The position numbers and the translations under genes are program-made. The notes beneath the pieces are model-generated. The model was not told the DNA's origin, did no database searches, and saw only the letters and a list, made by a program, of their open reading frames with translations. Positions 12,870-36,205 of a stretch of DNA of 64,000 bases are shown here, in pieces. This DNA is from Sporobolomyces roseus (lineage: Eukaryota; Basidiomycota; Microbotryomycetes; Sporidiobolales; Sporidiobolaceae): assembly GCA_016617785.1 (NCBI GenBank), contig JADILM010000012.1, positions 186,001 to 250,000 of the forward strand. The letters are read 5' to 3'. How positions within the stretch are numbered: position 1 is the first letter of the stretch; every line of letters starts with the position of its first letter.

Positions 12870-14261
12870 TCAAGTGGGTGCAGAAGGGAGAATGATACGA
12901 AAACCCGAGAGATCCAATTTCTTCAACTTTGGACCTCGGTAAGGTTTGTGAACATAATCGTTGAATTCTTGCTCTGATAGAGGTCCCCAAGTATCGAAGA
13001 GATTCGGATAGAATGGAGGGACGTCATCATCGATGCTAGGTGGGAGGATCGACCCTTGACGTCTGATGTTTGTCGCTTGTATCAGTGCGAGAAGGACAGG
13101 AGAAGTAGGAGGGGGGGAGCCTTACTTGGTGATCGAAGCGCGAAGCATTTTAACGTCATCTTCCAGATGATCAGAGCACATGAGCTCGCCTTTGAGAGTG
13201 AGATAGCGAAGTGAAGGGAACAAGTCGACGAGGAAGATAAGATAAAACTCGACATTTGTTTCGAAAGAGAGAATGAGGTTGCGAAGTCGAGAGAAGGGAG
13301 TCGGATTGAAAGAGCGGGATTCGACTATGTCCTCGTAGTACTCGCCGTCCGTTCTGAGCTCGGGTCGCATCAGCTCGTAAACCGTCCATTTGGAAGGGGC
13401 GATTTGTTGAGAGAGATCGAAAATCTGCTCCCAGTCTTCGTCACTAACTTCGTCCAAATCTGTCCCCTTTTCTATTCCGATTTCTCCTCCAAGATTATCG
13501 AGTATCTCCTCCATACGATAGCTACTTACTTGATGTTCGATGTAGTGAATTGCTCCGAAGAGGAACCAAATCAATGGCGTCGCTTCTGCCTGTAGGTTGA
13601 GTTTCTTGATGGTGAGTCGATTGTGGGTGGTTGGTCCCAAGAGTTCAGCAACGAAAGCATCGTTGATCGGGTAATAGGTAGAAACCGTGAGCGATGTGAG
13701 GTTGCGAAAAAAGAAAGGGGTGAGGGCGATTGCGAAGAGATGGGAAGAGTCGAAGCGAGAATCGAGACGAGTGAAGATCGGTTCCTCGTTAATGTCGAGA
13801 TTGTCCACGTTGCGATCGTACTTGAAAAGGATCTGGAAACGGGGAGGCAGTAGTAGTAGTCATAAATTGGGCGGAAAGGAAGTAACGTCAGCGTTCTCTC
13901 CTTTCACAGATGACTCGCTTGAAAGGCTCACTGATTCGGGCACAGCGATCTCTTGCAGGGATTCCTTCCCATCATTGACAGTCCAAGGCGTTATCCGAGA
14001 GGAATAAACGTTGGTCCATTTGTCCGCTCGTTTCTCGTTGAACAACACCGGATGTAGGTAGAGTCGAGAGTTTGCGATAGAGTGAAAGATTCTGTTCGTC
14101 CTGGCGAGCGCAGCGAGCGCTCCTTGTCGAATGCGAGGAATTGGCTCTTGTTCAACGAAAGCTGTGAAGGTAGAGGAGAAGTCAGCTCATGGGAAAGAGA
14201 GAGAGCTACGGGTGGACTCACTTGAGATCAATCTGAGTAGTTCTAGAGGTAGTCTGTCCAT
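12870..14261 (-). CDS. F-box protein with LRR-like C-terminal region (397 aa)
   Basis: Four exons: 14261-14222, 14161-13908, 13832-13126 and 13062-12870. The N terminus reads MDRLPLELLRLI, then a helix with LAALARTNRIFHSIA, the classic F-box pattern for Skp1 binding in SCF ubiquitin ligases. The remainder has irregular Leu-rich repeats (SLRYLTLKGEL, LKKLDLSGF), consistent with substrate recognition. No signal peptide or membrane segment. The 40-nt first exon ends inside the F-box in phase 1, exactly as in the F-box gene at 42844-44255, so the two are probably paralogues. The end of exon 2 is uncertain because a second phase-0 donor lies about 20 bp downstream. The substrate cannot be inferred. 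Confidence 0.75.
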
Positions 14262-14859
14262 CTTGTAGGAGTGCGGGGTGAAGGTAAGAGCAAGAAAGAT
14301 CGAGATTCGTGGCTTGCTTCCCACTCTTCACCACGACTCTCAGAATGGCCTCAAGATAAGCTAGATCAGTAACTACAAGCTTTAGTAATCACCCACGGTA
14401 AGTCTCCGCTGCTCCCTCACCTTTCTCGAGCCTGACCCACTCTTCTCCACCTTGAAAGGTTTAACGATTTCTATCTGCCATTGTAGCATCTGAGAAGCTG
14501 CAATACCGAGGCTCACAACTCTTGACAACCTTAGCTCCTAGTCGAGCTTGATTTGCGGATCAGAGAGCGGCGACTGGACAACCTTCAATTCGGATTCCTT
14601 TCCCTCTTACATTATTCCTCCTTCGTCGTCGTTTCTCAACCTTCGCACGGTCGCAACTTGCTTCCGCCGAAGGTCGTAAAGCGGGCGACGCATGCGTACG
14701 CCTCTCGGGAGCTCCCGGTTCCGGATCGTCGCTTCGGGTTTAGATCTTTCTTCGGGTACTGGAAAACCTCTTTGGCGCCTTTCTTTCCTTTCATTCCCTC
14801 CACCTCCCCTTCATCTTAGTATCCTCTGACCCCCTCCAATACAGCTTTCCTCGTCCAGA
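14262..14859. other. Intergenic region between divergent genes
   Basis: About 600 bp between the F-box start (14261, -) and the small gene at 14860 (+). It must hold both promoters. The last 80 bp before 14860 are pyrimidine-rich. I see no gene in it. Confidence 0.5.
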
Positions 14860-18363: not shown

Positions 18364-20657
18364 ATGACTGGGAATGGAGGGAAGCTCACTGCTATCTCAT
18401 TGACTCAGCTCTCGACCTCTTTAACTTCACTCAACCAACTTTCAATTTATAGAGGAACCATCACCAATCTCCGTAAGTACGACTCGAGGACCAAGGTGTT
18501 ATGCTTCAGACTGGCTGGGATCGGAGAGGACATGGGTACTATCGAGGTCGAAGTGAGAGAAGAGGTGGGAGATGAGATGAATCGAAAGTTGAAAGAAGGA
18601 AAGCAGATCATCTTGAAAGGGAAGAGAGGAAAGCTGGTGCTACCAAGGAATGATAGAGAGAGGAGTAAGGTAGTCTACGAGAAGATGATCAATGGTTATT
18701 TCTTGCCAGGAGAAGTTTCGTTCGAGATTTCGCAAGGTGCGTCTGCCCTTCTAAGACTCTCTCGTGAATGTGCTAATCTCGAATTTCAAGGTAGAAAACC
18801 TCAAGAAGGCGAAGAGAGCGAAAGAGGCCGTCGTCAACTCCGATAAGATCACTCCGAATGCGAAATCATCCCTCTCTGCTCCTACAACGACGGAGACCGA
18901 GAACACGAAGGACGAGAATGCTAGACTGCGAGTCAAGATGTGCAACAAGTCTGTTCAGACTCGACCAGGTCGATTCATGCCCGATTCCTCACCCGAACTC
19001 GTCGAGTCGACCACCGTGCCGACATCGAAGAAACGAACAGCCGATACTCTGGATGGTGATGGAGATCAGGAGATGGAGGATGCACCAGTCGATACTAAGG
19101 AAATCAAGGCGAAGAAGGTGAGTGCACCTGGAGAAGGGTCGAGATCGAAGAAGAGGCGGAAACAAGAGGACAAATTGAATTGGGATCTCAAACTCGTTCG
19201 TCGACTTCTTTCGTTTCAACCGCTCATTCTGTCAACTGAATCTGAAGAATTCGGTTGGACAGGCTGACGGTCCTGCGTACACGCCTCTGAAAGACATTCA
19301 GTCGGGGATTGCGAAAGGGAGCAAAAACTTCATGGTCGTTATCGTCGGGATCACCAAATTCCCGCCTCGAGCAACTACAGGAGATCGTGAGTTCCTTCTC
19401 TTCATTGGCTTCGAGACTCAATCTATCGATTCTCGACTGATCTTGATTTTCTCAACAACTAGAATGGTTTGTTCGACTTCTGGTGACGGATCCGACCCTA
19501 TCCATCGGCAACATCGCTCAAGACGCCTCAAGCTCGACGATCGAGATTCAATGGTATGAGAACGACGTGAGGAAGATCCCAAAATTCGAAGAAAAAGACA
19601 TCCTGATCGCAAGGAGCGTCTTCGTGAGCCACCTTTTCTCCTCCCCCTTCCTGCTTCCGTATTCAAGCTGAACGAGCGTTCGATGACTATAGGTCCCGAG
19701 CGGACGAATCAAGATAGTCAGATCTTCGAAATTCACCAACCCTTATCGACTGCTCAAGCCTTCAGAGCTCCTCGATCCAGCTATCTCGCCCTTCCTCGTC
19801 TCAATGCCTCTCAAGGATAGTCCGACGATCGTACTATCGGAGGCAGAGCTCAACTTCGCAGTACAGCTCTCGAAGTTCTATCAGAAACGGAATACGAAGA
19901 TTTCGCAGACAGGAGGCGAACGAGCTTTCGAGCAGACTCAAACTCAAGGTACTTCCTTCTCGAATGCCAATACTCACCCTCCCTCGGCCGCGGCTTCTTC
20001 CTCGACTGCTACTATAGCTCCTCGTCAACCCGGTCGACTTCGCGAGATCAAAGATATTGAACCTGGAGTATTCTGCGATGTTTACGGCGAAGTACGTCTT
20101 CTCCCTTCTCTTCCCTCTCACCTCCCAACTCATCTCCCACTCACAGATCCTCAAATGTCACGTCGAAGATTTCCAGCTCCCTTCTCTCCACCCCGTTAAT
20201 CTTTACATCACGGATTACACTACCAACCCACTCCTGATGTCCTACGAGAAAGATTCCACCTCCTCCCTTCCCGCCGGTCAACAAGTCCTTCAAATTTCCT
20301 TATTCGAGAATCAATCTGAACCTCTCAAACCGTTGATGGAGAGGAGTAGTAATGGATGGACGAAAGTCAAAGTGGGTGATTTCGTGAGAATTGATAATTT
20401 AAGACCAAAAGAGAATGAGAGGGGTTTACTTGAGGGAACGCTGGTGGATGATAGGAAGTATAACGAGAAGAGGTACGTGAGGGTTATTAGGAAAGATGGG
20501 TATCTGCCGAAAGAAGTGCAGGAACTACTAAGGTGAGTCTATTGAGGCGTTTCAGGTTTTTCGACGAGGGAAGCGTACTGAAGTCCATTTGATGGGTCAC
20601 AGGCGAAAGAGGGAGCAGATGAAGCAGAACAAGGAGTCAAATATGGCTTCGAGCTAG
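18364..20657 (+). CDS. POT1: POT1-like telomere end-binding protein, paralogue A (632 aa)
   Basis: Seven exons: 18364-18736, 18795-19195, 19263-19386, 19463-19623, 19693-20091, 20147-20532 and 20603-20657. Residues 259 to about 390 match the first telomere-binding OB fold of POT1: AYTPLKDI, then VGITKFPP and LLVTDPTL. Residues about 470-620 match the second: DVYGE, LYITDYTTNPLL, ISLFEN, VGDFVRIDNL. POT1 binds the single-stranded G-rich overhang of telomeres and controls end protection and telomerase access. Residues 1-124 are an additional OB-like domain shared only with the two other copies in this window. A Lys/Ser/Asp-rich linker (about 125-258) carries a basic KKRRK cluster that may be a nuclear signal. 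The C-terminal TPP1-binding part known in human and fission-yeast POT1 is absent. The first in-frame ATG was chosen as start. Confidence 0.85.
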
Positions 20658-20914
20658 TCGCGGCGAAGGAGTGGAAGTCGAGGGAAACAGAGGTTCGCCA
20701 GACGGAGAGCTTGCGATCTTGATGTACCATTTCTGATTTTGTTGTCTATATCTATGCAATGTTCGCGCTCTCTGAGTCCATGCTTCGAGCGGGTCTCACT
20801 GCAGTTTATGCGAGTTCAAGGGTCTATATGTTCAAATATATTCGTCACTTTCCACCACTACTGTCCTCCAATCTTTCCTTCGTCGTCTTCTCGATTCTCC
20901 ATCTCAACCCCTCT

Positions 20915-22462
20915 CTACAATTCCTCCTTGACTCGATCCGTAACCTTCGCCGCAACGCTCGAAACAGTCGACGCTGCTTGGCTCGCTCCCTTCGAACCCT
21001 CCGAGCTGATCGAACTCGCACTCTTCTCGACTCCTCCTCGAACTACACTCTTGACTGAAGCGCTGACTCCCGATACAATGGATGAAGCGGATTTGCTCGC
21101 TCCCGTAGCAACCGATGAGGCTGAAGAGGAAACAACTGATCCTGCAGAAGAGATTGAGGAGGATCCGACGTTCGCTGCTGAAGAAATCGAGGAGCCTGCG
21201 ACGGTTGCTTGCGAAGAAAGGGAAGATGAAGCGGAGGATGCAATGGATGAAGCCGTTGCTGATGCTTGCGAGGCGTACGAAGTTGCAGAGGCGAAAACGC
21301 TCAAGATCTGTAAAAGAACAAATCTCCTCGCTACGTCAATCTCGACAAGAACATTACGAGTAAGAGGGAGTTGCCGTTTACGTTTTGTTTCATTTTCATC
21401 TCCTCCAATTTCCCTCTCTGAACTTTCCCTTTACCCTTACTAACCATTTTACCCAATCTCTGACTCTCCCCCTCGATCCATTTCTTCGCTTCCTCTACGT
21501 TGTCCTCTGCGAGTTGAGACCATTTAGTCATGAGTTTGAGGTAGTACGCCGACATTTCGGAGGAGCGGGTCGAGAGGGAGGACGAGAGGGAAGAGGCTGA
21601 AGCGAGGATCGAGGATCGGGGCGAGGAGGGGGAGAGGTAGGCTGCTGCGAGGTTGTCTAATGACGGGATACGACCGGCCTGTGCGCGAGAACGAACTTCC
21701 TACAATGAGCATGACGTTCCCTCTTTGTAAAGAGTTAGATTGAAACGCACGACATCAGACAAGATTCCACCTTTCCCTTTCTGAGTTCCACACTTCTCGT
21801 TCAGGTACTCCAAGAAGGCTTCTTCAGTTCTCGCTCCGTTGTATGTATCAACTCCTCCACCTTTTGAAGGAGGTTCGAGGAATTTGAGCGTGGGGAATCC
21901 GGAAACACCGTAGCGAGATGAGATAGGACGGGCGGCAGCTTCGTCTGCGTTGAGGTGTGCGACTTTACACTGTTTTCATGAGTGAGTGTCAGTGAGACCT
22001 TCAGAAGGAGAAGAGGAGAGGCCGAGAGGAGGACGAACTCTGTCGTCGCCGTCGAACGCTTCGGCGATTTTAGACCAGGTTCCTTCGAGGTTCTTGCAGT
22101 GACCGCACCTGTTCATCGAAGCGAGCTCAGTACACGGAGCTGCCGAAGCCGAAGCGAAGGAGTTGAATACCAGGGAGCAAAGAAAGCGACTAGAGTTCCC
22201 TCGGATTGCGAAGCGATGACGCTGTTCAAAGCAATTGCAAGATCAGCACCGCCCACCCTCGAGCTGAAGCGACATAGGACTCACTTGTCAAAGTTTTGAG
22301 GAGTCAACACAGTCTGTAAAATAGAGAGAGAGTTAGTGATGTAGCTCCACGTCCGAGTGGAAGAGAGACAGAAAGACAAACGGAGAACTTTGCGTCCTCC
22401 AATCCAGCGTATACTGATGGTAAGAGTGAGAGAGCTGCTGATAAGGTCAAGAAGTATTTCAT
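20915..22462 (-). CDS. Secreted/ER protein disulfide-isomerase-like protein with one CGHC thioredoxin domain (386 aa)
   Basis: Seven exons: 22462-22382, 22313-22285, 22221-22171, 22108-22039, 21969-21751, 21699-21382 and 21307-20915. Residues 1-19 look like a signal peptide (MKYFLTLSAALSLLPSVYA). The thioredoxin domain has the redox motif WCGHC (CGHC at 55-58) and the cis-proline segment GVSGFPTLKF (Pro103). Residues about 150-256 are helical and resemble the ERp29-type D domain found after the thioredoxin domains of fungal ERp38-like isomerases. The last 130 residues are an Ala/Ser-rich repeat-like helix, ending in Lys-Glu-Glu-Leu, a possible variant of the KDEL/HDEL retrieval signal. The likely role is disulfide formation or isomerisation in the ER. 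A single thioredoxin domain with a long low-complexity tail is unusual for the group. It is divergent from U1-70K. Confidence 0.85.
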
Positions 22463-22644
22463 CGTTGATTATTGAAGTGGTGACAAGGGAAGATGTCGAG
22501 CGAGCTAATCGGAATGAATTCAAAATTTAACGAATTGGGCATTATGATTTCTTGTATTCAATTCAAGTCCTCTCCTCTTTCCCGCACTGCAGCTTCCAGA
22601 TCAACTTGCTTAGACTGCTCAGGAGCAGCTACTAACTCTCTACT
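22463..22644. promoter_or_regulatory. Putative bidirectional promoter, PDI-like / U1-70K
   Basis: 182 bp between the divergent starts at 22462 (-) and 22645 (+), AT-rich near the centre and pyrimidine-rich toward U1-70K. Assigned from position only. Confidence 0.4.
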
Positions 22645-24383
22645 ATGGTCGGAGTAAGTCTCGCTCTCTCCTCTCCCTCGTGTTCCGTCTCATCAAATCC
22701 ACCACCTCATTAACCCTCAACTAACCCTCTCTCGTCTCTCCTCTTTCGCAGACCCATCTACTCCCTCCGAATCTACTCAAACTCTTCGCCCCCCGTCCTC
22801 CACTACCTTACCTGAAACCCACCTCTCGTGATCCCGACCTTCCACTAAAATCCCTCTCTTCGAAACGTGCTCCCCAACCCATCGTACTATCTACCGTACT
22901 GAAACAAGTGAAAGAAGAGAAAGATGAAGCCGAACGGAAAGCTCTAGAGGAAGGAGAGAAACCAGATCGAGTAGAGGGAGAGGATAGTGGATTGAATGGA
23001 GGAGTTAGTAAAGCTAAAGAAGAAGAGTTGGAAGGGAAAATGGACGTGGATGGAGAGGTGAAAGAGGAGGACAAAGAGGAAGTCAAGGTGAATGGAAAGA
23101 ACAAGAATAAGAAACTTTCGACAGAGGAGAAGGACAAGAAGGAACCTCCGAAAGCAGTCAAGAAGGAGGGATTACCGGAAACGAGTGAATTCAGTTTGAC
23201 CGCTGAAGAACAGTTTCAAGCTAGGCGTAGAGAACGACAGAGGTTGAGACAAGAAGCAATGTCGAAAACTTGTAAATCTTCTCCCTTCTCTTTTCCTCCT
23301 CTCCCTCCTTTACTTACGCTGGCAGTTTCCCCCTGAGTATAGATGATCCAGCAGCTGACGAAGAGATCTGCGGAGACCCTTACAAAACTCTCTTCATCGG
23401 TCGTATTCCCCTCGATGTAACTCCCGAAGAGTTGATCCGAGAATTCTCAATCTATGGACAACTCGAACGAGTACGACTCGTGACGGATGAAAAGACGGGG
23501 AAATCAAAAGGTTACGCGTTCTTGGTGTATGAGCGGGAGAGGGATATGAAAGCTGCTTATAAAGATGCGGATGGGATGAAGATTCATGGCAAACGATTAT
23601 TGATTGATGTCGAGAGAGGAAGGACTGTTAAAGGGTGGAAACCGAGACGATTGGGAGGTGGTTTGGGAGGAAGAGTGAAGAAATTGAAAGGTACGAACAA
23701 CTTCTCACTCTTTCAAACATCGAAATGTTACTGATTTGAAGGTATGTTGGTGATCGTAGGTGGTGTACCTGCTCCTGAACCTGCACCAGTATTCAACGCT
23801 CCTCAAGCAGGTGGTTATGGTCAACAAGGACCCCCGATGGGAGGATTTGGAGGACCACCTGGAGGGGGATTCTCAGGTAGAGGAGGATTCGCACCGAGAG
23901 GAGGAGGATTCGCTCCTCGAGGTGGGTTCGCTCCTAGGGGTGGATTTGCTCCTAGAGGGGGAGGATTCGGAGGAGGGAGAGGAGGTTACGGGTGAGTTTC
24001 AATCTCGCAATTTGATCAATCGAATCCCTTGACTGATCTCGCGAATCTTGGATTGTCACAGCGGTGGATTCAACGCACCTCCGGGTGGAGGTATGCCTCC
24101 TTCTGGACCAGGAGCAGGAAGGGGAGGATTTCAACAAGGAGGAGTCGGTTACTCTGGAATGGGCGGAGGAGGAAGAGGGGGCTACCAAGGAGGGGGAGGG
24201 GGAGGGTATGGATTTGCAGGAGGACAAGGTCCGAATCAAGGAGGGGGAGCACCAGGTTTCCAAGGACTCAGCAATCCGGATTCAGGTTACGGTTCGAGAG
24301 GTGGAGGGGAAAAGAGAGGGTACGGGGATGGTCCGGGAGGGGGAGGGTATGGAGGTGGGGAAGACAAGAGAGCGAGATATTAG
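22645..24383 (+). CDS. SNP1: U1 snRNP 70 kDa protein (476 aa)
   Basis: Five exons: 22645-22653, 22752-23271, 23343-23690, 23760-23991 and 24062-24383. The N terminus has the U1-70K signature LLPPNLLKLFAPRPPLPYL, which wraps around the U1 snRNP core. An RRM follows from about 177: RNP2 LFIGRI at 193-198 and RNP1 KGYAFLVY at 232-239. The family hallmark ERGRTVKGWKPRRLGGGLGG comes right after. This RRM binds stem-loop I of U1 snRNA in 5' splice-site recognition. Between the N-terminal signature and the RRM sits an extra, highly charged Lys/Glu/Asp stretch (about residues 55-150). The C-terminal third is Gly-rich with RGG/GGF repeats instead of the Arg-Ser region of animal U1-70K. The first exon codes for only three residues. 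Confidence 0.93.
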
Positions 24384-24598
24384 GACCTATCGTTGTCTTT
24401 CGTACTTCAAAATGTATTCTTCGTTTTCATCTGAATCTCTTTCGGTCTCTCGTTCAAACAGAGGACATCGAGTGCGAAGTCAGGATAGGTAGGTACAGCA
24501 CAGATGGTATTGCGCAAATCGTGACAACAGAAGAAAGGCACAAAGCGAAGAAAGCACAACATCAAGAACAGCACAAACTCAAGCGTCGCTCTCCATGC

Positions 24599-26393
24599 CT
24601 ATCTACCTGACGCGAACTCTGTGACGAGTAATGCTACCTACTAATCAGCGTCCACAGTCCGAAGACTAGAGAGGAGACAACAAGACTCACCCAATTCTTT
24701 CGGTTTCGTTTGACCCCCCAACCTCTTCAGTTGACCCTCGATTGGTTCTCCCTCCTTTCCCACATCCAACATCTTTCCTCTATAGAACCTAGCAAGCTTG
24801 ACGGCGTGAATTAGTTCAGGTTGAGAGAGTTTTAGCTGGACAGTATCTCGGAATACGAGAGATTGGAGGTCGGGTAGAGCTGAGGAGGAGATGAGGGATG
24901 AGCTGGCGAGGGCGAGGTAGGGATAGTAAGTAGATCGGTCGTAGCGTCGGAGCTTGGATAATTTGGTGATCTGTGTGGAGAAGAAGCAACAATTTATCAT
25001 CAGCTTGTTTCGCACTTAGATAAAGATGGCTTTTTCACTCACGCGTACGTCGCGAAGGAAGAGGACATCTCCAGGTTTGAATGGTGGTAGCTTCTTCGGG
25101 TTTCGTTCGTACCATTGTAGTTCGACGATGGAAGCGTGGGAATCGAGATTGGTCGAATCGAGTGAAGGATCCGTGACGAGGAAACGAGCGCAATACGCTG
25201 AGAACGGGAGAAGTCGGTGTCGAGCTTTACGGTGTCATCAATAGGGAGAAGATTTGCTCACAGTCGTTCTGAATATGGACGCGAGGTGGACTCAACTTTC
25301 CAAATTCCACGACCATAACGGCGAAATGTGCGGAACCGGTTACCTTTCTGTCTTTGACTTTCTGCAATGTACTGTAAGCTCGACCGCTTGTCTGCGAAGC
25401 GGAAACGAAGTCAAATTCGTTGCAGTCAAGGGTAAAGGAGGGTAGGAAACGCACAGCGACGAGGTCCCATTCTGATTTGACGTAGTTTGTACTCTGGAGC
25501 TTGACATTACTCGTAGACGTCGAAGATACACGTAGCAAAGTGAGCGTGTTGAGCATCGGAGGAGGCCGAAGAGCTTGAGTTGATGCGATTTTTGAGAGAA
25601 CGACTTGCGCTTCGATCTTGTCTTTCTGCATCATCGGATTGGGTGCGGTCGCAGCTGGAAGAGAAGGTATCTCTATAGCTACACGTTTCGAGGATGAGGG
25701 TTTCGAGACGGGAGAGGGGGATGGATCGCGTTCGTCGTCGTTCGTAGCCTTTGCGAGTTTGCGTTTCTTCGCACTGCTGGTCGGGGAGTTGAGATCGAGG
25801 GCGGCGAATGGAGTTGAAGCGGAGGATAGAAGAATGCTGGTGGTATGGGTCGGAGTGGAGCTTTGAAGAGGTTGAGCAGACGCTTGAGCTAGATTTGAAG
25901 GACGAGGGACCGAAATCATCGATTTGACGGCAATTGCTTGGGGCGGCGAGAGAAGACCTGCAGACACTCCGAAGACTAATTAATCGTCACGTAACGTCGA
26001 TAGGTACCTCGAGTGCTCACCTAGCGAAAAGTATACCTCCTTCTCCTCATTTTCCCTCCAAATCCAACCCTCAATTCCATTCTCATAAGTGACTCTCGCT
26101 CGCGGCATTACTCCATTCTCCATCTTCTCTAGCTTCCCACCCTTGCAGAGTAGCCTAATCCTATCTGTCTCCTTCACTTTGTCACTCAACTGAATCCCAT
26201 TTTCTCCTTTCACCTCGACATAAACCATTGCGCGGTTGGGTCTTGCGGATACTAGAGTGATCTTGAATACCTCAGAAGAGAAGGAGGTCGAGCAGACGTA
26301 GCCTTGGAAAGTGCAATTCGGGAGGTTGAATGATGAGGAATCGGTTCCTAGGTCGATGAGAGCGATGCGGGGACGTTTGTGAGGTGCAGCCAT
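24599..26393 (-). CDS. POT1-like protein, paralogue B, lacking the second OB fold (about 486 aa)
   Basis: Proposed exons: 26393-26021, 25957-25455, 25391-25262, 25197-25043, 24970-24691 and 24618-24599. Residues 1-124 are the extra OB-like domain shared with copies A and C; exon 1 is 373 nt, the same length as in copy A. A linker of about 168 residues follows, rich in Ser/Pro with a KKRK cluster. OB1 starts near 293 (AYSTLQKV, VVEFGKLSPP, FLVTDPSL, VELQWYERN) and runs to about 430. The protein then ends: nothing resembling the DYT-containing OB2 of the other copies is found before the next gene. The intron in frame at 25392-25454 (63 nt) is placed by alignment, since WDL precedes the same junction in copy A. 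If the last intron is not removed, the frame runs to a stop at 24641. Confidence 0.75.
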
Positions 26394-26716
26394 TACCTGC
26401 GTCTTGCTCTGTATGACTTGGCGAGCGCTGTGAGGTTGTTGAAGTGAAGAGAAGGAGAAAGAAAGATGAGAGAGTTTTCCTTGTCTTTTCGATTTGAATT
26501 GCTGGCGAAGGATGGTCTAGTGTGATTCGTATGAGCGGAGATGGGACTAATTCAGAATAGAGTAAGAAGAGCGAGAAGGAGACGTTTCGAATTTCGCAAA
26601 AGTTTGGTTTCGCAAATTCGAGGCTCGCATTCAGCAGTCGACCTCGGTACACCAAAGCCTCGCAGACGACAGAAGCGACGGCTTCTGATAGAGTCGATAA
26701 GATAGTAATGCAAGAT

Positions 26717-29168
26717 CTACTCATCCATATCGACTTTCCCTTTCCTCGCTCTCTTGACTTTCCTCTCTCCATCTCCCTCTTGACTTTTCACTTCCTTCTT
26801 CTCGCTCTCTCCCTTCCCATCCTTCTTCCCTCCCTTCTTCTTCTTCTTGTCACCTTCTTCCTCCCCTCCCCTCCTCTTGAACACGCCTCCCTTTCCACCC
26901 ATAACCCTTTCTCGTTTCCCTTTCATTCCTTTTCCATCCCTCACATCATCGGCAGCTCCAGCTCCATTCGTCTTGCTAATATCTTTCCTTCCAATCGGTC
27001 GCATCTTCAAGGCTTTCTTCGAGTCTTGCGAAGGGTTGGGTAAAGCTAACATCCAATCCGGGACTTTGCAACCAGATTGTCGCATCACGTTGACGATACT
27101 GTGCGAATTGTGAGAATATAAGTTAGTCGGAAGGTGAGAGAGCAAGAATGAGAGAGAGGCGTACGTTTTGAGGTGACCCGCATCAGCTTTGGTAAAGAAT
27201 GTAATAGCTTTCCCTTCTTTCCCAGCTCTCCCGGTACGGCCTAAACACCCGAACAAGTTCTTACTCCATCAATACCTTTCGAACATTAGGAGCGAGAGAG
27301 CAAGGAAAACGTGCTTACCAATCCTATGAATATAACTCATAGCACTCTGCGGGAAATCGTAATTGACAACCAACTTGACTCCCCTGAAGTCGATTCCCCT
27401 CCCCATGACATCGGTACAAACCAATGCCCAAACCTTACCTTCCGCGAATTCTTTCACTGCAATATCCCTCTCCTCTCCAGTTCGTTCCGCATGAATACAA
27501 TCCGTCGATAACCCATCTAGGAGTAATTCTGTCGTGAGTTCTTTCGCGCGTTGAATCGATTGGACAAAGATTAGGACCGGGGGAGTGAATTGACCAGTTG
27601 TGATCAGTGAGCGGAGGGAGAGGAGTTTGTGATCTTCGGTGTTCACAAATAAGAGATCTTGCGTGATCGTCGAGGTTGCTGCTTCCCTACTCACTCTCTC
27701 AAACTCATCAGCTCACTCTATCTCATCCATCCCGTCAGAAGGACGACTCACTTGTGACCGACGATCGCTCGAACTAATCCATTCCCCGCGCCAGCCATCA
27801 CTCCCTTAGCCATTTCCTCAACTGAGGAGGGCATAGTAGCACTAAACATTCCTTTCCTAACCTCCCCCTTGTTGACTTGAGATTGTGAGCAAGCAGCCAA
27901 GATCTCGTCGGTTTGTTCAAGGAAGTTTAGTTCGAAGAGTTTGTCGGCTTCATCGAGGATCAGATGGGACAAGTTGGCGAAGGAGACGAGAGAGGATTTG
28001 AGTGCGTAGACTAGTCGGAGAGGGGTCGTGATCAAGATGTCTGGATTCGAAGGAGAGGAGTTAGTCTCGCTGCATCTTGAGGAGCAGATTTCGGCAAGAA
28101 TGGACGAGAAAAGACGTACCAATATCACCCAATACAGGTTCTGGTCCCTCTTCCACTTCCTCCGCGTCTTCGATCTCCTCGTTCGTCTCAGTCTCAATCT
28201 CCTCTCCCTCTTTTCCCTCAACTTTTTCCTTCTCTTTCCCCTTCCCTTTCCCTTTCTTGCCCTTCTTTCCCTTCTTACCACTTCCTTTCACGACTCCACA
28301 ACCATCCTCTCCAAGTACTCCAACTTTCCAACCTCCTTCCACAGTCCCAGCTAATCTCCTCGTTTCCCTCAATACCTGAACTGCTAATTCTCTCGTAGGT
28401 TCAATCACTACCGCTCGTGGTCTCAATTGCTTCTCGATTCCTTTCTGAGCCTCGGAGGCGAAGGAGGTTGAGGAGGAGGGAGAGTTGAGAGCGAGTAAGG
28501 GAAGGATGAATGAATAAGTTTTCCCACTCCCCGTTGGTGCGCATGCTAGGATGTCTCGATTCTATCCCAATCGGAAACTCTTACAATCAGCTCAGACTCG
28601 ACAGAGAAGAGTGTAAAGAAAAGACTCACAGCAAGCATGATTCCCCAACTCGCCATTTGAATTCCAGTAGGATCTTTCATTCCCAATGCTTTCCAATTCT
28701 GTTCGAGAGTTGTGAGAGCTGCTTGAGTTTCGAGAGAGGACGTCGAGGAACGGAGGGAAGAGAGAGAGGAGACGGGGGAAGGGAGGTCGAGACCTGAGAG
28801 TTTGATTTTGTGTTTCCTGATTAGAGCTGCCAAATCGACTGGAGGTTCATCTGCGGCTGTAGTTAGGAGGATGGAGAGAAGGTTAGCTTGCGAACGGGGT
28901 TGGGGAGGAGAAGGCGAGAGGACTTGCGAATAGATCCTGTTTGTTCGTCCGCCTCGACTGGCTGAGTTCTCTTTCGTTTCTTTTCCTTCTGACTCTCAAC
29001 CTTAGTTGGAGTGGTAGCGAAGAAATCAAGTTCAGCTGGAACTGATGAGGCTGAAGTAGTTGAAGTTGAAGGAGTTGTTGAAGGATTGGGTTGGAAATGA
29101 TTGATATCTTGTTTGAATCGTTTACGATCAAAGTTTGAACCTCCTGTCAAAGTTCTGAAAGCGTCCAT
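26717..29168 (-). CDS. ROK1: ATP-dependent RNA helicase ROK1/DDX52 (674 aa)
   Basis: Seven exons: 29168-28928, 28856-28630, 28561-28120, 28040-27752, 27686-27319, 27240-27165 and 27098-26717. DEAD-box motifs in order: APTGSGKT (164-171), PTREL (211-215), DEAD (333-336), SAT (370-372), FVQS, GRGIDF and HRIGRTGRAG (520-529). The N terminus MDAFRTLTGG and the VGHKEAA segment fit the Rok1/DDX52 subfamily, which releases snR30 and acts in early 18S rRNA maturation in the nucleolus. About 60 residues of Lys/Gly/Glu-rich sequence are inserted between motifs Ia and Ib (about 243-303). The C-terminal tail is strongly basic. The first intron seems to use a GC donor at 28927. Its start faces COX10 across 141 bp. 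Confidence 0.93.
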
Positions 29169-29309
29169 CTTTTCTAGCGAGAGTGTAGAGTGAAAGGTAA
29201 GGAATCAAAGATGAAAAGGTTTGAAACTTTTTTCGAAGTTAAATCTCTGACTTGACCACTTGACTAGACTCGATCGATCTCACTATAGAGCAGCAATAGG
29301 AGGATCAAG
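29169..29309. promoter_or_regulatory. Putative bidirectional promoter, ROK1 / COX10
   Basis: 141 bp between divergent start codons, with an AT-rich core around 29220-29250. Assigned from position only. Confidence 0.4.
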
Positions 29310-30803
29310 ATGCTCAGTCGAGCTATCCCTTCCACCTCTCGAGGGAATCCATTCAATCTATTTCGACCATTCCCTTCTCCTCCTCATCGACAATACTTCT
29401 CAACTCAATCAACCAGACTGAAAGGGAAACAATCAATACAATATGCACACGAAGATCTACTATCCCCTTCAATAACGAATCCACCTAGATCATCGACGAC
29501 AAATCCTTCTTCCTCATCTCCCAAAACTCGAAAGTCACGAACTAAACCTCCGTCCTACTTTCAACAATCATACGCATTCTATCCCCCACCTCCCTTATCA
29601 ACAGCAGCGGAAGACCTCCCTCCCCCTTCAACTTCACCTCTCATTCCTTTATCCTCTCCGATTCCTCCTCCTCTCCCTCCTTCCCTCCTCTCGAATGGTC
29701 TACCAAACCCTTCAATCAGATGGAGACCTCGACCTGCAACCACGATCCAACAAGACATCGATCTCTACAAAGCACTCGGCAAGTTCAAGTTGTCGTCCTT
29801 GGTAGTTTTGACAACGATGGCAGGTTACGCAATGTGTCCCGTCGACCCTTCGATCACCTCTGCAGCAGTAGACGCATTCGCCCAAACTCTATCCTCACCC
29901 TCGTCCAATTCCATCCTCCCCGAATCAACTTCCCTCTTATCCTCCCTCGGTTCATCACCAGCAAACAACCTAACCCTTTCCGTCCTCCTCCCCACTACAG
30001 TCGGAACCACCTTGTGCGCCTTCTCCGCAGCCTCCTTCAACCAATTGATCGAATCACCTTACGATTCCCAAATGGCTCGAACGCGCTCCCGACCTCTCCC
30101 TAAACGTCTCATCACTCCTCTCCATTCCTTCGCCTACGGTACTCTAACCTCCACCCTCGGACTCACTACCTTATACTTCATCAATCCCCTCTCATCTCTC
30201 CTCGGTCTCACCACAATCCTCCTCTACTGCCCCCTTTACACCATCTCAAAACGACACTCCATTTACAACACCTGGCTCGGTTCCGTCGTAGGAGCGATCC
30301 CACCCCTAATAGGTTGGGCAGCATGTACCGATTCCCTCGACCCCTTGACTCAACCAGGAGCGTGGTGTTTATTCGCCTTGATGTTCTTTTGGCAATTCCC
30401 TCATTTCATGTCCCTCGCACACACCCTCCGTTCCTCTTACGCTTCATCAGGGTACCGTATGTTATCAGTCCTCGACCCTCCAAAAAACGCTCTAGTCTCG
30501 TTGAGATACTCTCTCGCACTCTTACCACTCTGCGCGGCATTCCCGGCGTTAGGATTGACGACGACGGCGTTTGCTTACTTGAGTTTGGTACCTAATGGCG
30601 TTATGGCGGTTTGTGCGTGGAGGTTTTGGAGGAAAAGATCAGAGAGGAGGGCGAAGGAATTGTTTTGGAGTTCGTTGGTTCAGTTACCGGTGGTGTTGGT
30701 GTTGATGCTTTGTTGTAAGAAGGGATTGTGGGAGAGTAAAGGAGAGGAGGCCGAGGAAGTAAGGGGGATTGAGGGAGTCAAGGAGGAGGAGAAGAAAGTT
30801 TAG
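29310..30803 (+). CDS. COX10: Protoheme IX farnesyltransferase (COX10), mitochondrial (497 aa)
   Basis: Intronless, which is rare in this window. The enzyme converts heme B to heme O by transferring a farnesyl group, the first step to heme A of cytochrome oxidase, in the mitochondrial inner membrane. The N-terminal region of about 140 residues is rich in Ser, Pro and Arg with few acidic residues, consistent with a presequence plus a long linker. The UbiA-family core starts near LGKFKLSSLVVLTTMAGYA. The prenyl-diphosphate/Mg site is FNQLIESPYDSQMARTRSRP (243-262, with Asn244 and Asp252). Several hydrophobic helices follow, and FFWQFPHF is a COX10 hallmark. The C-terminal tail is charged (Glu/Lys). 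The protein is longer than bacterial homologues mainly because of the N-terminal extension. Confidence 0.93.
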   Translation: MLSRAIPSTSRGNPFNLFRPFPSPPHRQYFSTQSTRLKGKQSIQYAHEDLLSPSITNPPRSSTTNPSSSSPKTRKSRTKPPSYFQQSYAFYPPPPLSTAAEDLPPPSTSPLIPLSSPIPPPLPPSLLSNGLPNPSIRWRPRPATTIQQDIDLYKALGKFKLSSLVVLTTMAGYAMCPVDPSITSAAVDAFAQTLSSPSSNSILPESTSLLSSLGSSPANNLTLSVLLPTTVGTTLCAFSAASFNQLIESPYDSQMARTRSRPLPKRLITPLHSFAYGTLTSTLGLTTLYFINPLSSLLGLTTILLYCPLYTISKRHSIYNTWLGSVVGAIPPLIGWAACTDSLDPLTQPGAWCLFALMFFWQFPHFMSLAHTLRSSYASSGYRMLSVLDPPKNALVSLRYSLALLPLCAAFPALGLTTTAFAYLSLVPNGVMAVCAWRFWRKRSERRAKELFWSSLVQLPVVLVLMLCCKKGLWESKGEEAEEVRGIEGVKEEEKKV

Positions 30804-31119
30804 AGAGTTTAGAGAAGAGGAGAGGAGTACTATTGGATTTCGTGTTGTATTGTCGTAAACATGTTGGAAGATCTAGCAATTAGCAACGCATCGCATCTCT
30901 CATCTTGTCTCTTCTGGTCGTAAATCGGAGAGCAAAACCGATCGTCTGGCGAGACTTGACTTGACGATTTGTTCGGTGATTCCCCCTCTTCTTTCTATTT
31001 CCACTTGACACCACTCTCGCTCGCTTCGATTACTCCTTTATATCGCAATAATCAGCTCACAAAGCACTGGACAAGACCATACTTCCCCTCAAAACCTCAC
31101 AATCTCGAACTTGAATTCG
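30804..31119. other. Intergenic, COX10 3' side and BZZ1 5' side
   Basis: About 315 bp between tandem genes. It should contain the COX10 3' UTR and the BZZ1 promoter. No coding signal was seen. Confidence 0.5.
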
Positions 31120-33705
31120 ATGACCACCTCATCTTACGGAGCCTCGTACGCTTCCTCTCCCTCTCCTTAAGTACTGCCCATGTTCCACAAAGCTAACTTA
31201 CTCCCTGATATAGCTTACCGGACTCTGAGCCGCTCGTCCACTCCCGCCTAACTTCCTACCTATCCCTCCTCCCCTCTTTCTCCACTTTCCTCTCTTCCCA
31301 CACGCAAGAATCCATATCTCATTCCCAAAAGCTCTCTACCTTAATAGGAACCTACCGGAAACAAACAGCTCAAACAGCGGAGGAGAGAGGTGGGGGAGGA
31401 AGTACGTTTGAGAGAGGATTGGCGGGAGTTTTGGAACAGATGGATTTACAGGCTAGGGAGGTTGGGACGAGGGCTGAGAGGGAACAGAGGGAGGTTAGTG
31501 CCGTGATGAGTTTGACAGGTGCGAGATTGGACGCGGTCAGGAAAAAGGTCAGTCGTTTTCGCTGTTCATCTGCTGCATGTTGGGGCAAAAGCTGATGTGG
31601 AGGGAGGAGGGCATTGACAGCACCATGAGCAATACAAGAAGCTGTTGTCAGAACGAGATCGAACGAATGAGCAAAGGGACAGATCGAACGGACTCTATTA
31701 CTCAGCATGCGAATCCGTCGAATCAACACGACAAAAGAAGGCATCTGCGAAAGAAGGACGGGATATGGAGAAGGCTACGAAGAATTACGATGCAGCATTC
31801 GAAGAGATGTTGAGGACGAAGAACCAATATTTACTCGACATTGATTCTTCAAACGTCTTCAAAAATCGACTTTACAACGTTCACCTACCAGCTCTACACG
31901 ATGATTATCAAGTACTAGAACACTCTACGACACTTCAAATGGTACATTTGGTCGAGAAGATGATTGGGATTCAGAAAGAGAGTTTGGAGAAACTTCAACA
32001 GTCAGTAGGGAAAGCGAAAGTGGAATTGGAAGGGATCGTTCCGGAGAGGGATCAGGAAGAGTTTGTGAATAGATATAGTGCGACCAAGTTGGCGGCTTGG
32101 GAAGTCCCTCCTGATGCGACTTTCGAAGAGTGTGCAGTCTGGCACGATACCGTGCGTTTCTCTCTTTTTTGGTCATCGTTCTCCACAGAAACTGATGACG
32201 TGTCAGAGGTGGTACAGGATGATTTCTCTACTACACCCGCTTCGACCACATACTTGCAAAACGTGCAAATCAAGAGTACGAGTCGATTGAACGAAATTAC
32301 TCCTGCGTTCGAGACGAAACGGAGGGAGTTGAGCGGATTGAAGAACCTCAGAGAAGCTTACGAACGAGATTGGGGTTTAGGGGATACAATCGGTGTGATC
32401 GAGGTACATTCGCCTGTTTCCACTTGCATCTTCCACATTCCTGAATTGATGCAGGTAACTCGCGCATGTAGAATCTCTTCACGACAACACACGACACGAC
32501 TCTTCTCGAACTCCAACAATCCGAACACAAATCTCAAATCGAGTTGATTCTCGCAACTCTCGGAGATTCTGCTTCGACCGGATTGAGACCTCATGAATTC
32601 AAGCATTCTAGTTTCGTCACTCCTTCGACTTGTGCGGTATGCGAAGGAAGTGTTTGGGGGAAGGGAATGAAGTGTGAGAAGTGCGGCATGTCGGTGCATT
32701 CGAAAAAATGCGAAATGAAAGTGTGTCACTCTTCCTTTCTTACCATCTTGCTTGATTTGAGACTGATTGTAAGCGAGAGAGTGGACGCACAGGTACCGGC
32801 TGGATGTAATGCTAGACCTGGAGCAGGTGTCGTACGGAGTAAGAGCAAGAAGACTGGAGGAGGAACAGATTCGAGTCCTCCTATGAGTAGTCAGATGTCG
32901 AACCTCTCTCTCGCTAGGTCCACTTCATCAGGTACGTCGACGAGCTTCTTCTCAGCTTCGCACGCCCAGCTAAGATCGCTCTACCCCTCGATGTACAGCT
33001 GGTTCAACTTATTCGACTCCCTCAACATCGACTTCTTCAGCTCCACCTCGTCGATCAGTTCCTCCTTCATTCGGTGGCTCTTCGCCCGCAGCTGCTTCAA
33101 GTGCTCCATTACCGCAAGCTACTCTTCAATATGAGTACGCTGCGGCAACAGCTTTCGAATTAACCGTATCAGGTACGATTCAATACCCTCTTATAGTCTC
33201 ACTCAAGAACATAGACTAATGATAGTGTTTGTGTCGTACAGAGAGTGATGTTGTATCTGTGCTTGAACCTGAGGATTCATCGGGCTGGACTAAAGTACGA
33301 ACGAGTGACGGGAGAGAAGGTTTAGTTCCCGGATCCTACCTCTCTCTATCCTCGTCCTCCACTACTTCTCCTCCACAGGCTTCAGTGGGGGGACAACAAG
33401 GTACTTCCTCTCTCTTCCTTCCGTCTCGCTCTAGTGTTGAGACTGACTCGTCTTCGTTGAATCAATGAGTAGTGGTTGCATTATACGATTACGCTGCTGC
33501 TTCAGCCGACGAAGTTTCGATCGTGGAGGGTGAACGAGCGGTACTGGTGGGCAAAGGGATGGAGTATGGTGACGGCTGGGCCGAAGTTGAGGTCGAGGGC
33601 AGAGGGAGAGGGATCCTGCCCGCTGCTTATGTACGTCGCTCTCTTCGTCAGTTCTTGACCTGTAACTGATCTTACTTAGTGGAATCACAGATTCAACTGG
33701 TTTGA
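31120..33705 (+). CDS. BZZ1: F-BAR/C1/SH3 protein, Bzz1 type (656 aa)
   Basis: Ten exons: 31120-31145, 31214-31547, 31621-32151, 32218-32403, 32472-32720, 32793-32931, 32999-33172, 33242-33400, 33473-33630 and 33691-33705. Residues 10 to about 350 are a long helical F-BAR region. A C1-like zinc finger starts at His400 (HEFKHSSF...CAVC at 413-416) and ends with Cys447. A Ser/Thr/Pro linker is followed by two SH3 domains, about 533-583 (YEYAAATAFELTV, GWTKV) and 600-656 (VVALYDYAAAS, GDGWAEVE, GILPAAYIQLV). This domain order matches fungal Bzz1, which binds Las17/WASP and shapes actin at endocytic sites. The acceptor of intron 3 is uncertain by nine bases. The last exon codes only for the end of the second SH3 domain. 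Confidence 0.88.
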
Positions 33706-33951
33706 ATGGCTTGAGAGGTGGGGTTCGCAGGGGAGAGCTGGCGTAGATTAATAGACACTCTGCATTTTCATACCCTCGCTATGAAGCTATATACTTTTTT
33801 CTCTTTCTCCCGCGTTCTACTTCGCACTATTAAGCGACTACCGAGATCTGACACCTTTGTTTTAGAGATGTGCGAACCTCGTCTTGACTTGCGAAACTTT
33901 CATCTCTGTTTCTCTCTCCCCAAATGCTTTCACTCTCGCTTTCGCCTCAGG

Positions 33952-36205
33952 ATGGATCTCAAAGAAGCTAGTCTCCTCACCATCTGCTCTGCAACCACTA
34001 GATACACTCTCAAAGCGAACGACTGCTTTAGAGGTCGAATCATTCAACCATCACTCCTCAAAAAGAATGGCGTCACCTCTTACTCGTTCACCTTAGCCAG
34101 CATAGATCAAGGAGAAGGAGATGTCTCTATCGCAATCGAACTCAGAGGAGCTGGGCTAGTAGATAAGGCGTACAAAGATGAATTGTTACATCGATGGTCG
34201 GATCGCGTCAAGATTGCGTTGCAGGGACGAGGAGGAAGGTGTGTCGAGCTACAGGGCATTGGAAAAAATGGAACGAGACGCGCCAAGATCGTTTATGAGG
34301 AAGAAATGTTGGGTTGGTTTTTGTTGAGGGACGGGAAAGAGGAGAGATTCGTTTTGAGGAAACGTGAGTTCCGTTAAGTGCTCTCGATAGCGTGCGAAGA
34401 GAGTACTAATGGTATCATTCATCAGCGTCGCCGCCGCTAGTAGCAGAACAAAGAGTCGATCCTCTCGCAGCGAAACCGAAAGTCGACATTCAACCCGTCA
34501 AGACACGTACGCCTCCCCCGAAACCGAAACTCGTCGACTCGGAGGTTCAAACTATGCCACTCATTCAACCGGTAGCCTCAGCGAGCGACAACACGAAGAA
34601 GCGAAAGTCTGAAAGGATCGACAATGGAGAAGAGTTACAGAAAGCTGGATCAATTTCTGGGATGAAGAAGACAGCAAGGAAACGTTCACCTTCCCCTGTC
34701 GTCATCGAGGAGGAACCCGAAGCAGAAGGAAGCTGGAACGTTCGACCAGTGAGCATTCCTCTCTCGAATTAAGATCCAATCCGAGAACTGAACGTCTACT
34801 CCCTTGTAGCCTTCTCCATTCACTTCTTTAGCGGACATCAAAGCTCACGGTAAAGACGCGACGTCTTACAACATTGCTGCTGTCGTTGAGAGTCTGCAAA
34901 TCTCCCCACCTAAAAAAGATGGTGAGCTCAGTCCGAACGCTGGTCCGGATCTACTTGTCTGACGCTTCACTTGTTATCATAGATTGGTTCATGCAGATCT
35001 ACGTGACCGATCCGACGATGTCTTCTGAGCGCATCGAAATCCAATGGTACTCGCGTCAGAAATCGCTGCTTCCCAACATCAAGGCCGGATATATTCTGCT
35101 TATCAAGGGTCTCCGGGTATGTCTGCAGCACTTCTTCTTTCGGGGCATTGAGGATCGCTGAACCTTCCAATTTGTTGCGTACAGCTTCAATCCCCGAGAT
35201 TCAAGAAAAGTTCTCTAGTGTTCATCACACACGCTACGATCGATCCGGCCTCTCTTGTCAATCTCTCGAGCTACCCCAACAATCTCCCTTCCTACGCTTG
35301 CCTTCCCGGTCAAAGCGCACCTTCGATCAGAAACATCGAACTCGCCTACGCTATCGCACTCGCAACTTTCGATAACACTCAGCGAGTCCCTGTTTGGGTT
35401 CGCAAAGCTCTCAAACCTGTCGTCTCCAATTCTCCTGCTCAATCTATCAAACCTGCTGCGGATCATGCTCGCTCTTCTTCGCTTTCCGCCCAATCTTCGA
35501 AATCGTCCAATCCTTCAAATCCCTCTTCCACCGCTTCTCATCGCCCTGCGGCTGCCGCTCCCCCACCTCGAGCGCTTATTCCTACGGGATCAAGCAATGA
35601 GAGTCGTAAAGGTCGTCCTATACTCGAGATCAAGGATATCGAAGAATTCAAGTTCTGCGATGTCTTCGGTCAAGTACGCTTTGCTCTGTCTCTCTTTCCC
35701 TTTCTCCGCTGATCACGTTTCACCATGCAGATCCTCAAAGGACATGTCGACGACAACAAGCTCGCCTCGTCATATGCCGTTTGTCTCTACATCACCGATT
35801 ACACTTCAAACTCCGAAATCATGGACTACGATTCAGTTTCCGCATCAAAGACTGGAGTCCTCGTTGGTCAATTCACACTCCAAGTCTCTCTATTCGAGAA
35901 TCAAGCATCACCTCTCAAACCACTCTTTGGCGGATCGAAAGATACGAAAGTTGGAGATTTCGTCAGGATTGATAATTTGAGGGTGAAGAGGAATGAGTAT
36001 GGACTGTTGGAGGGTACAGTGGTCGATGATCCGACGTATAAAGGTAAGAGATATGTCTCGTTGATCAGGAAGGAGGAGGCGTCGAAATATCCGGAAATCG
36101 TGAGGTTGCAACAGTACGTCTCGCTCGCTTTCTCATCGCTCTCCTGCTTGAAGCTGATGAGACGCTTCTTCGAGGTATAGTAGGAAGAAGGAGCAAGGGA
36201 GATGA
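33952..36205 (+). CDS. POT1-like telomere end-binding protein, paralogue C (625 aa)
   Basis: Seven exons: 33952-34363, 34426-34748, 34810-34921, 34983-35116, 35185-35673, 35731-36113 and 36181-36205. The intron phases (1,0,1,0,0,2) are the same as in copy A. Residues 1-137 are the extra OB-like domain, with KIVYEEEMLGWF aligning to the YE..G(Y/W) motif of A and B. The linker (about 138-245) is Pro/Lys-rich with a KKRK cluster. OB1 runs from about 246 (SLADIKAHGKD, IYVTDPTM, IEIQWYSRQ) and OB2 from about 476 (DVFGQ, LYITDYTSN, VSLFENQ, VGDFVRIDNL). The extreme C terminus RKKEQ parallels RKREQ in A. An in-frame ATG at 33868 would add 28 residues. Telomeric single-strand binding is the expected role; whether it is still the main POT1 cannot be told. 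Confidence 0.83.

What the first reader, a model, noticed from the sequence alone, without database searches (positions are those of the whole stretch)
18364..36205. Three POT1-like telomere-protein genes within 18 kb
The genes at 18364-20657 (+), 24599-26393 (-) and 33952-36205 (+) share the POT1 OB1 pattern (Y-T/S-x-L start in A and B, V-T-D-P, E/Q-W-Y) and, in A and C, the DYT-containing OB2. Most fungi are thought to have a single POT1; duplicates are known in rodents, plants and ciliates, where the copies split protective and telomerase-related roles. Three divergent copies on one chromosome arm, interleaved with housekeeping genes, suggest an old local expansion with inversion, and possibly a diversified telomere cap.
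Basis: partly seen in the sequence, partly recalled or inferred. Interest (0 to 1): 0.88.

Follow-up and report, generated by a model that had tools for sequence, protein, structure and literature searches.

The report
Four POT1 genes, three lacking tether
This Sporobolomyces-like yeast carries one normal gene for the protein that caps chromosome ends plus three old, shortened copies that lack the part tying the protein to its telomere partners, which points to a chromosome cap with split roles that has not been tested here.

Summary
Genes A (18364-20657 +), B (26393-24603 -) and C (33952-36205 +) are POT1 paralogues spliced by small GT-AG introns, in a 22.4 Mb genome whose nearest database relatives are Sporobolomyces. 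A, B, C and D share four introns in place and phase; A, C and D share two more. A and C keep OB-N, OB1 and OB2 and stop 17 and 7 residues after the last shared intron. They lack OB3, the TPP1/Tpz1-binding domain that D keeps. B also lacks OB2. The three, with five Sporobolomyces proteins, form one group (100/100) against ten canonical POT1s. All eight have Y, all ten canonical F, at the DNA-stacking position. So this is an old DNA-level duplication, 3'-truncated and expanded, with A- and C-type copies kept between species. Most likely they are G-strand and/or Rad51-binding POT1s without a shelterin tether; function is inferred, not shown. Surprise outside the window: two telomerase (TERT) genes, dN/dS about 0.02 in the catalytic core (rough).

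The parts
18364..20657 (+). Gene A, truncated POT1 paralogue: exons 18364-18736, 18795-19195, 19263-19386, 19463-19623, 19693-20091, 20147-20532, 20603-20657; 632 aa; OB-N, OB1, OB2, no OB3. The last junction is the least certain (the gene finder placed it 17 nt earlier)
   Evidence: model; PF16686 1.1e-18; 66% identity to S. roseus JCM5353_005151
18364..18736 (+). A exon 1 = OB-N
19263..19923 (+). A OB1 (three exons, introns inside)
20044..20618 (+). A OB2 with TDYT motif
24603..26393 (-). Gene B, OB-N plus OB1 only: exons 26393-26021, 25957-25455, 25391-25262, 25197-25043, 24970-24691, 24637-24603; 491 aa. If the last intron is not spliced the frame still ends within about 20 codons
   Evidence: PF02765 5e-5, below cut-off; no OB2 or OB3 nearby
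26021..26393 (-). B exon 1 = OB-N
24749..25391 (-). B OB1
33952..36205 (+). Gene C, truncated POT1 paralogue: exons 33952-34363, 34426-34748, 34810-34921, 34983-35116, 35185-35673, 35731-36113, 36181-36205; 625 aa; OB-N, OB1, OB2, no OB3
   Evidence: 64% identity to S. roseus JCM5353_001380
33952..34363 (+). C exon 1 = OB-N
34810..35385 (+). C OB1
   Evidence: (PF02765 1.2e-6)
35614..36190 (+). C OB2 with TDYT motif

Best explanation
A, B and C descend from one DNA-level copy of the canonical POT1 gene (D) that lost its 3' exons for OB3 at the OB2/OB3 border. The truncated copy was kept in a group of Sporobolomyces and multiplied locally, with an inversion, in this lineage; B later also lost OB2. 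Shown here: gene structures (by hand-made splice models), shared introns, one-group tree, domain loss, and between-species conservation of A and C. Inferred: A and C still bind TTAGGG single strands through OB1-OB2, and through OB-N plus OB1-OB2 may hold Rad51 as Ustilago maydis Pot1 does. Because they lack the TPP1/Tpz1-binding domain they are not anchored in shelterin. They would work as freely exchanging G-strand or recombination factors, for example during telomere replication or repair, beside the anchored cap protein D. B, with one DNA-binding OB at most, would be a protein-interaction or regulatory subunit.
Confidence: 0.6

Rival explanations
1. Subfunctionalised telomere cap: A and C bind G-overhangs at all telomeres and D handles mainly TPP1 and telomerase contact, as mouse POT1a and POT1b divide tasks.
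For: Two paralogues keep both DNA-binding OB folds and are conserved between species; domain identity A to S. roseus is highest in OB2 (123 of 145, 85%).
Against: Mouse POT1a and POT1b both have the C-terminal half that contacts TPP1 (passages of PMC8448735); without OB3 stable recruitment through TPP1 is not expected.
Confidence: 0.2
2. They moved away from telomeres and act as general single-strand or Rad51 regulators, or bind another ligand.
For: Fixed F to Y at the stacking position in all 8, and loss of one recalled contact residue in 5 of 8, A and B among them; loss of the shelterin anchor; U. maydis Pot1 stimulates Rad51 on substrates without telomere repeats (passage).
Against: The TDYT motif is unchanged in every copy that has OB2.
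Confidence: 0.25
3. Decaying duplicates (pseudogenes) without function.
For: Domain loss in steps; B has the longest branch and no orthologue was found.
Against: Open spliced frames of 632, 491 and 625 aa; A and C 66% and 64% identical to S. roseus orthologues with OB-N and OB2 better kept than linkers; truncated A-like copies in five species counting this one. For B alone this stays possible.
Confidence: 0.1
4. OB-fold proteins of another family such as RPA that look like POT1.
Against: Shared introns with D; PDB profile hits only POT1 and TEBP; PF16686 above its cut-off in A, C and D.
Confidence: 0.01

Closest known systems
Ustilago maydis Pot1 (PMC9119445)
   Same: OB-N, OB1, OB2 order as in A and C; with OB3 and zinc motif as in D
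   Different: [quoted passage not shown] A, B and C lack OB3 and sit beside a canonical copy
Caenorhabditis elegans POT-1, POT-2, POT-3, MRT-1 (starts of abstracts of PMC3564990 and PMC9881156 in a search listing)
   Same: Several POT1-like proteins in one genome
   Different: Recalled: the worm proteins have one POT1 OB fold each and there is no full-length POT1. Here a canonical POT1 is kept and the truncated ones keep OB-N and (A, C) OB1-OB2
Mouse POT1a and POT1b (PMC8448735, passages)
   Same: Duplicated POT1 with the DNA-binding OB folds
   Different: Recent duplication, and both retain the TPP1-contacting C-terminus
Euplotes rTP (title seen in the reference list of PMC4949321; content recalled)
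   Same: Telomere-protein homologue recalled as shorter than the end-binding protein and tied to DNA replication
   Different: Ciliate lineage; not compared by sequence here

Membership tests
POT1 / TEBP-alpha | OB1 telomeric ssDNA-binding fold (PF02765) | tested here: met
   [not shown]
POT1 / TEBP-alpha | OB2 (PF16686) | tested here: met
   A 68, C 65.6, D 36.7 bits, cut-off 27.2. For B: not met, no OB2 in or near the gene
POT1 / TEBP-alpha | C-terminal OB3 that binds TPP1/Tpz1 | tested here: not met
   Absent in A, B and C (0 of 8 truncated proteins have the zinc motif); present in D and its orthologues. Hence A to C are filed as truncated paralogues, not as full POT1s
POT1 / TEBP-alpha | Common descent with canonical POT1 | tested here: met
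   Shared intron places and phases; BLASTP A-D 2e-19, C-D 8e-17, B-D 0.006
POT1 / TEBP-alpha | TTAGGG telomeres in the organism | tested here: met
   TTAGGG arrays on 7 of 30 contig ends read, including the right end of C12 (the C10 array is only about two repeats long)
POT1 / TEBP-alpha | Binding of telomeric single-stranded DNA and telomere localisation | not testable with these tools
   Needs protein and cells
RPA70 | Closest kinship to RPA OB folds | tested here: not met
   [not shown]

The most novel reading that the evidence does not exclude
Sporobolomyces split the POT1 job between an anchored cap protein (D, shelterin-bound) and a set of unanchored POT1s (A, C: G-strand binding; B: one-OB regulator), and in this lineage the change goes with a second, constrained telomerase reverse transcriptase gene: a fungal telomere system with two telomerases and four POT1s on an ordinary TTAGGG repeat.
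Probability: 0.25. Interest if true: 0.82.

Novelty: new variant of a known kind. Interest (0 to 1): 0.62.

Why it matters
In a single-copy POT1, DNA binding and shelterin anchoring can be separated only by mutation. Here evolution has separated them and kept A- and C-type proteins between species beside the intact gene. That makes it testable in a yeast what OB-N, OB1 and OB2 do without the TPP1 tether, and whether POT1 has a telomere-independent role with Rad51. It also adds a case in which telomere proteins changed although the repeat is plain TTAGGG.

Tried and rejected
RPA or unrelated OB origin: rejected. Three equal POT1 copies: rejected because OB3 is missing in all three and OB2 in B. 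Assembly artefact or haplotype copies: rejected for POT1 by the depth of divergence; for the genome in general, one STE3 locus and one homeodomain (PF05920) locus argue for a haploid assembly. Mating-type region as the cause of shuffling: those two loci lie on C11 and C8, not C12. Timing: duplication before the Rhodotorula split is not rejected (AU p 0.34), nor is a roseus-lineage origin of A, B and C together (p 0.22); grouping the three A-like proteins of S. koalae, phaffii and pararoseus with A is weak (42/84), B with C likewise (39/76); B with the A pair alone is disfavoured (p 0.039). The best tree joins the truncated group between the D-type of S. roseus, pararoseus, salmoneus, phaffii and koalae (96/94) and that of S. 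blumeae, johnsonii, salmonicolor and R. toruloides (88/92). The tree flags B as a long, half-empty row and S. pararoseus 4740 as odd in composition. TPP1 search with PF10341: nothing anywhere, controls included, so it shows nothing. The alignment-based protein search returned 3 proteins, one of them new (P0006, a partial metagenome protein, left out of the tree). Absence of truncated copies in S. salmoneus, blumeae, johnsonii, salmonicolor and R. toruloides is not shown: the word-based searches scored only about 8,000 candidates each. My first model of D carried four wrong residues at the exon 6/7 joint (835 aa; used); the corrected one is 831 aa.

Full report
What is in the window. Hand-made splice models, all with GT-AG introns of 53-76 nt, give A 632 aa, B 491 aa and C 625 aa. 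A simple gene finder, trained on these same genes and so not independent, gave the first five exons of A as in the model but another donor for exon 6 and a longer last exon; the last few residues of A are therefore uncertain. The genes are each other's relatives: BLASTP A-B 6e-24, A-C 8e-19, B-C 4e-12. Pfam gives the POT1 OB2 family (PF16686) in A and C far above its cut-off. The OB1 family (PF02765) matches B and C below its cut-off, A not at E<=1, and D only at 0.099.

A genome search with PF16686 gave three places, all on contig C12: A, C and a third at C12:105566-105859. That third place belongs to gene D (C12:107620-104547, minus, ten exons, 831 aa), 97 kb from A. Searches of the whole 22.4 Mb genome with A, B and D found no other member at E<=0.001. 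All four genes therefore lie within 118 kb of a contig that holds 3.4% of the genome.

Origin. Intron places and phases are shared: four by A, B, C and D (the first within two alignment columns), two more by A, C and D. For the sixth, my first D model had another phase; the corrected joint, chosen because it fits the S. roseus protein, has phase 2 as in A and C. After this intron, just behind OB2, A has 17 and C 7 residues before the stop, whereas D continues through four more exons that carry OB3. This is a DNA-level copy with 3' truncation. In a maximum-likelihood tree of 18 proteins (A to D and 14 of the 15 database proteins found) the eight truncated ones form one group with support 100/100. 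S. pararoseus has both types, seen in two different strains. 'A-like' rests on best BLAST matches; the tree supports it weakly (42/84). The best tree places the duplication inside Sporobolomyces if R. toruloides is the outgroup, but an origin before the Rhodotorula split is not rejected (p 0.34). A gene family that looks F-box-like to me, without a Pfam match, has six further loci on C12 and one weak one on C4. It sits head-to-head beside D and about 4 kb on the 5' side of A. A joint block copy is possible but not shown, since that family multiplies by itself.

Signs of retention. A is 66%, C 64% and D 72% identical to the S. roseus orthologues. By domain (identical of aligned): A OB-N 88 of 124, linker 84 of 131, OB1 125 of 172, second linker 21 of 38, OB2 123 of 145; C OB-N 105 of 137, linker 60 of 108, OB1 92 of 149, second linker 37 of 71, OB2 106 of 150; D OB-N 80 of 125, linker 88 of 118, OB1 122 of 153, second linker 24 of 30, OB2 110 of 144, OB3 149 of 195 (D there is the 835-aa model). 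In D the linkers are kept as well as the domains. The aromatic that stacks on DNA in POT1 (human F62, S. pombe F88; correspondence read from the alignment and partly recalled) is F in all ten canonical and Y in all eight truncated proteins, a fixed, conservative change. B has no orthologue in hand and the longest branch, so its function is the least certain.

How it may work. In U. maydis, high-affinity G-strand binding is by OB1 and OB2 alone (PMC9119445, section 6), and OB-N and OB12 bind Rad51 (passages). A and C are such a fragment made by evolution. I infer that they bind G-strand DNA, perhaps Rad51, without being held by TPP1. B could at most interact weakly with DNA. None of this was tested. 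D64 of S. pombe OB1, a DNA contact by recall, is by my reading present in 10 of 10 canonical and 3 of 8 truncated proteins (C yes, A and B no), so altered specificity is a serious rival.

Literature. Searches of the open-access library showed no title or abstract start about POT1 copies in Sporobolomyces or about fungal POT1 paralogues lacking OB3; most listed papers were not opened. I saw PMC9119445 as passages, outline and section 6; PMC8448735, PMC7952879 and PMC4949321 as passages; the worm papers as abstract starts in a listing. Most papers of subscription journals are not held.

Beyond the window. Two TERT loci lie about 60 kb apart and inverted on C1. They are 89.9% identical over 6,280 aligned bases. 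Over 18 of the 24 predicted exons of the second copy (1,222 codons) dS is 0.21 and dN 0.038; in nine catalytic-core exons (341 codons) dS is 0.18 and dN 0.004, a ratio of 0.02. The exons come from the rough gene finder, and the frame of each exon was chosen as the open frame with the lowest ratio, which favours low values; one stop codon of the first copy falls in the last exon counted, in a stretch that may be an intron. Both copies keep the strings VDVKACFD, GIPQGS and YVDDF, which I recall as reverse-transcriptase motifs A, B' and C. The first copy shows a one-base difference in a C-terminal exon relative to the second; I left it as it is.

Noticed in passing
G000 C1:4270544-~4264600 (-) and C1:4329156-~4334790 (+), loci L043 and L044: Two telomerase reverse transcriptase genes, inverted, 89.9% identical in DNA; dN/dS about 0.02 in nine catalytic-core exons (rough models), so both look selected. 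A second TERT in a genome that looks haploid is unexpected and deserves its own study.
   Followed up: partly
G000 C12:107620-104547 (-), locus L004: Canonical full-length POT1 (gene D, 831 aa) outside the window, the reference copy for A, B and C.
   Followed up: yes
window about 12873-14297 (-); C12 near 86, 88, 109, 110.5, 119 and 308 kb: F-box-like (my label, no Pfam match) gene family, expanded almost only on C12 and placed next to POT1 genes D and A.
   Followed up: partly
P0001 residues about 351-371 and P0006 (database proteins): The S. roseus annotation of the A orthologue, and a metagenome protein, carry an insert at the place of the fourth intron, probably an unspliced intron in the annotation.
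   Followed up: no
window 29289-30800 (+): Single-exon UbiA prenyltransferase (probably COX10, name recalled) between B and C; other interleaved or flanking genes match GGACT, thioredoxin, RRM, DEAD/Helicase_C and SH3 families.
   Followed up: partly
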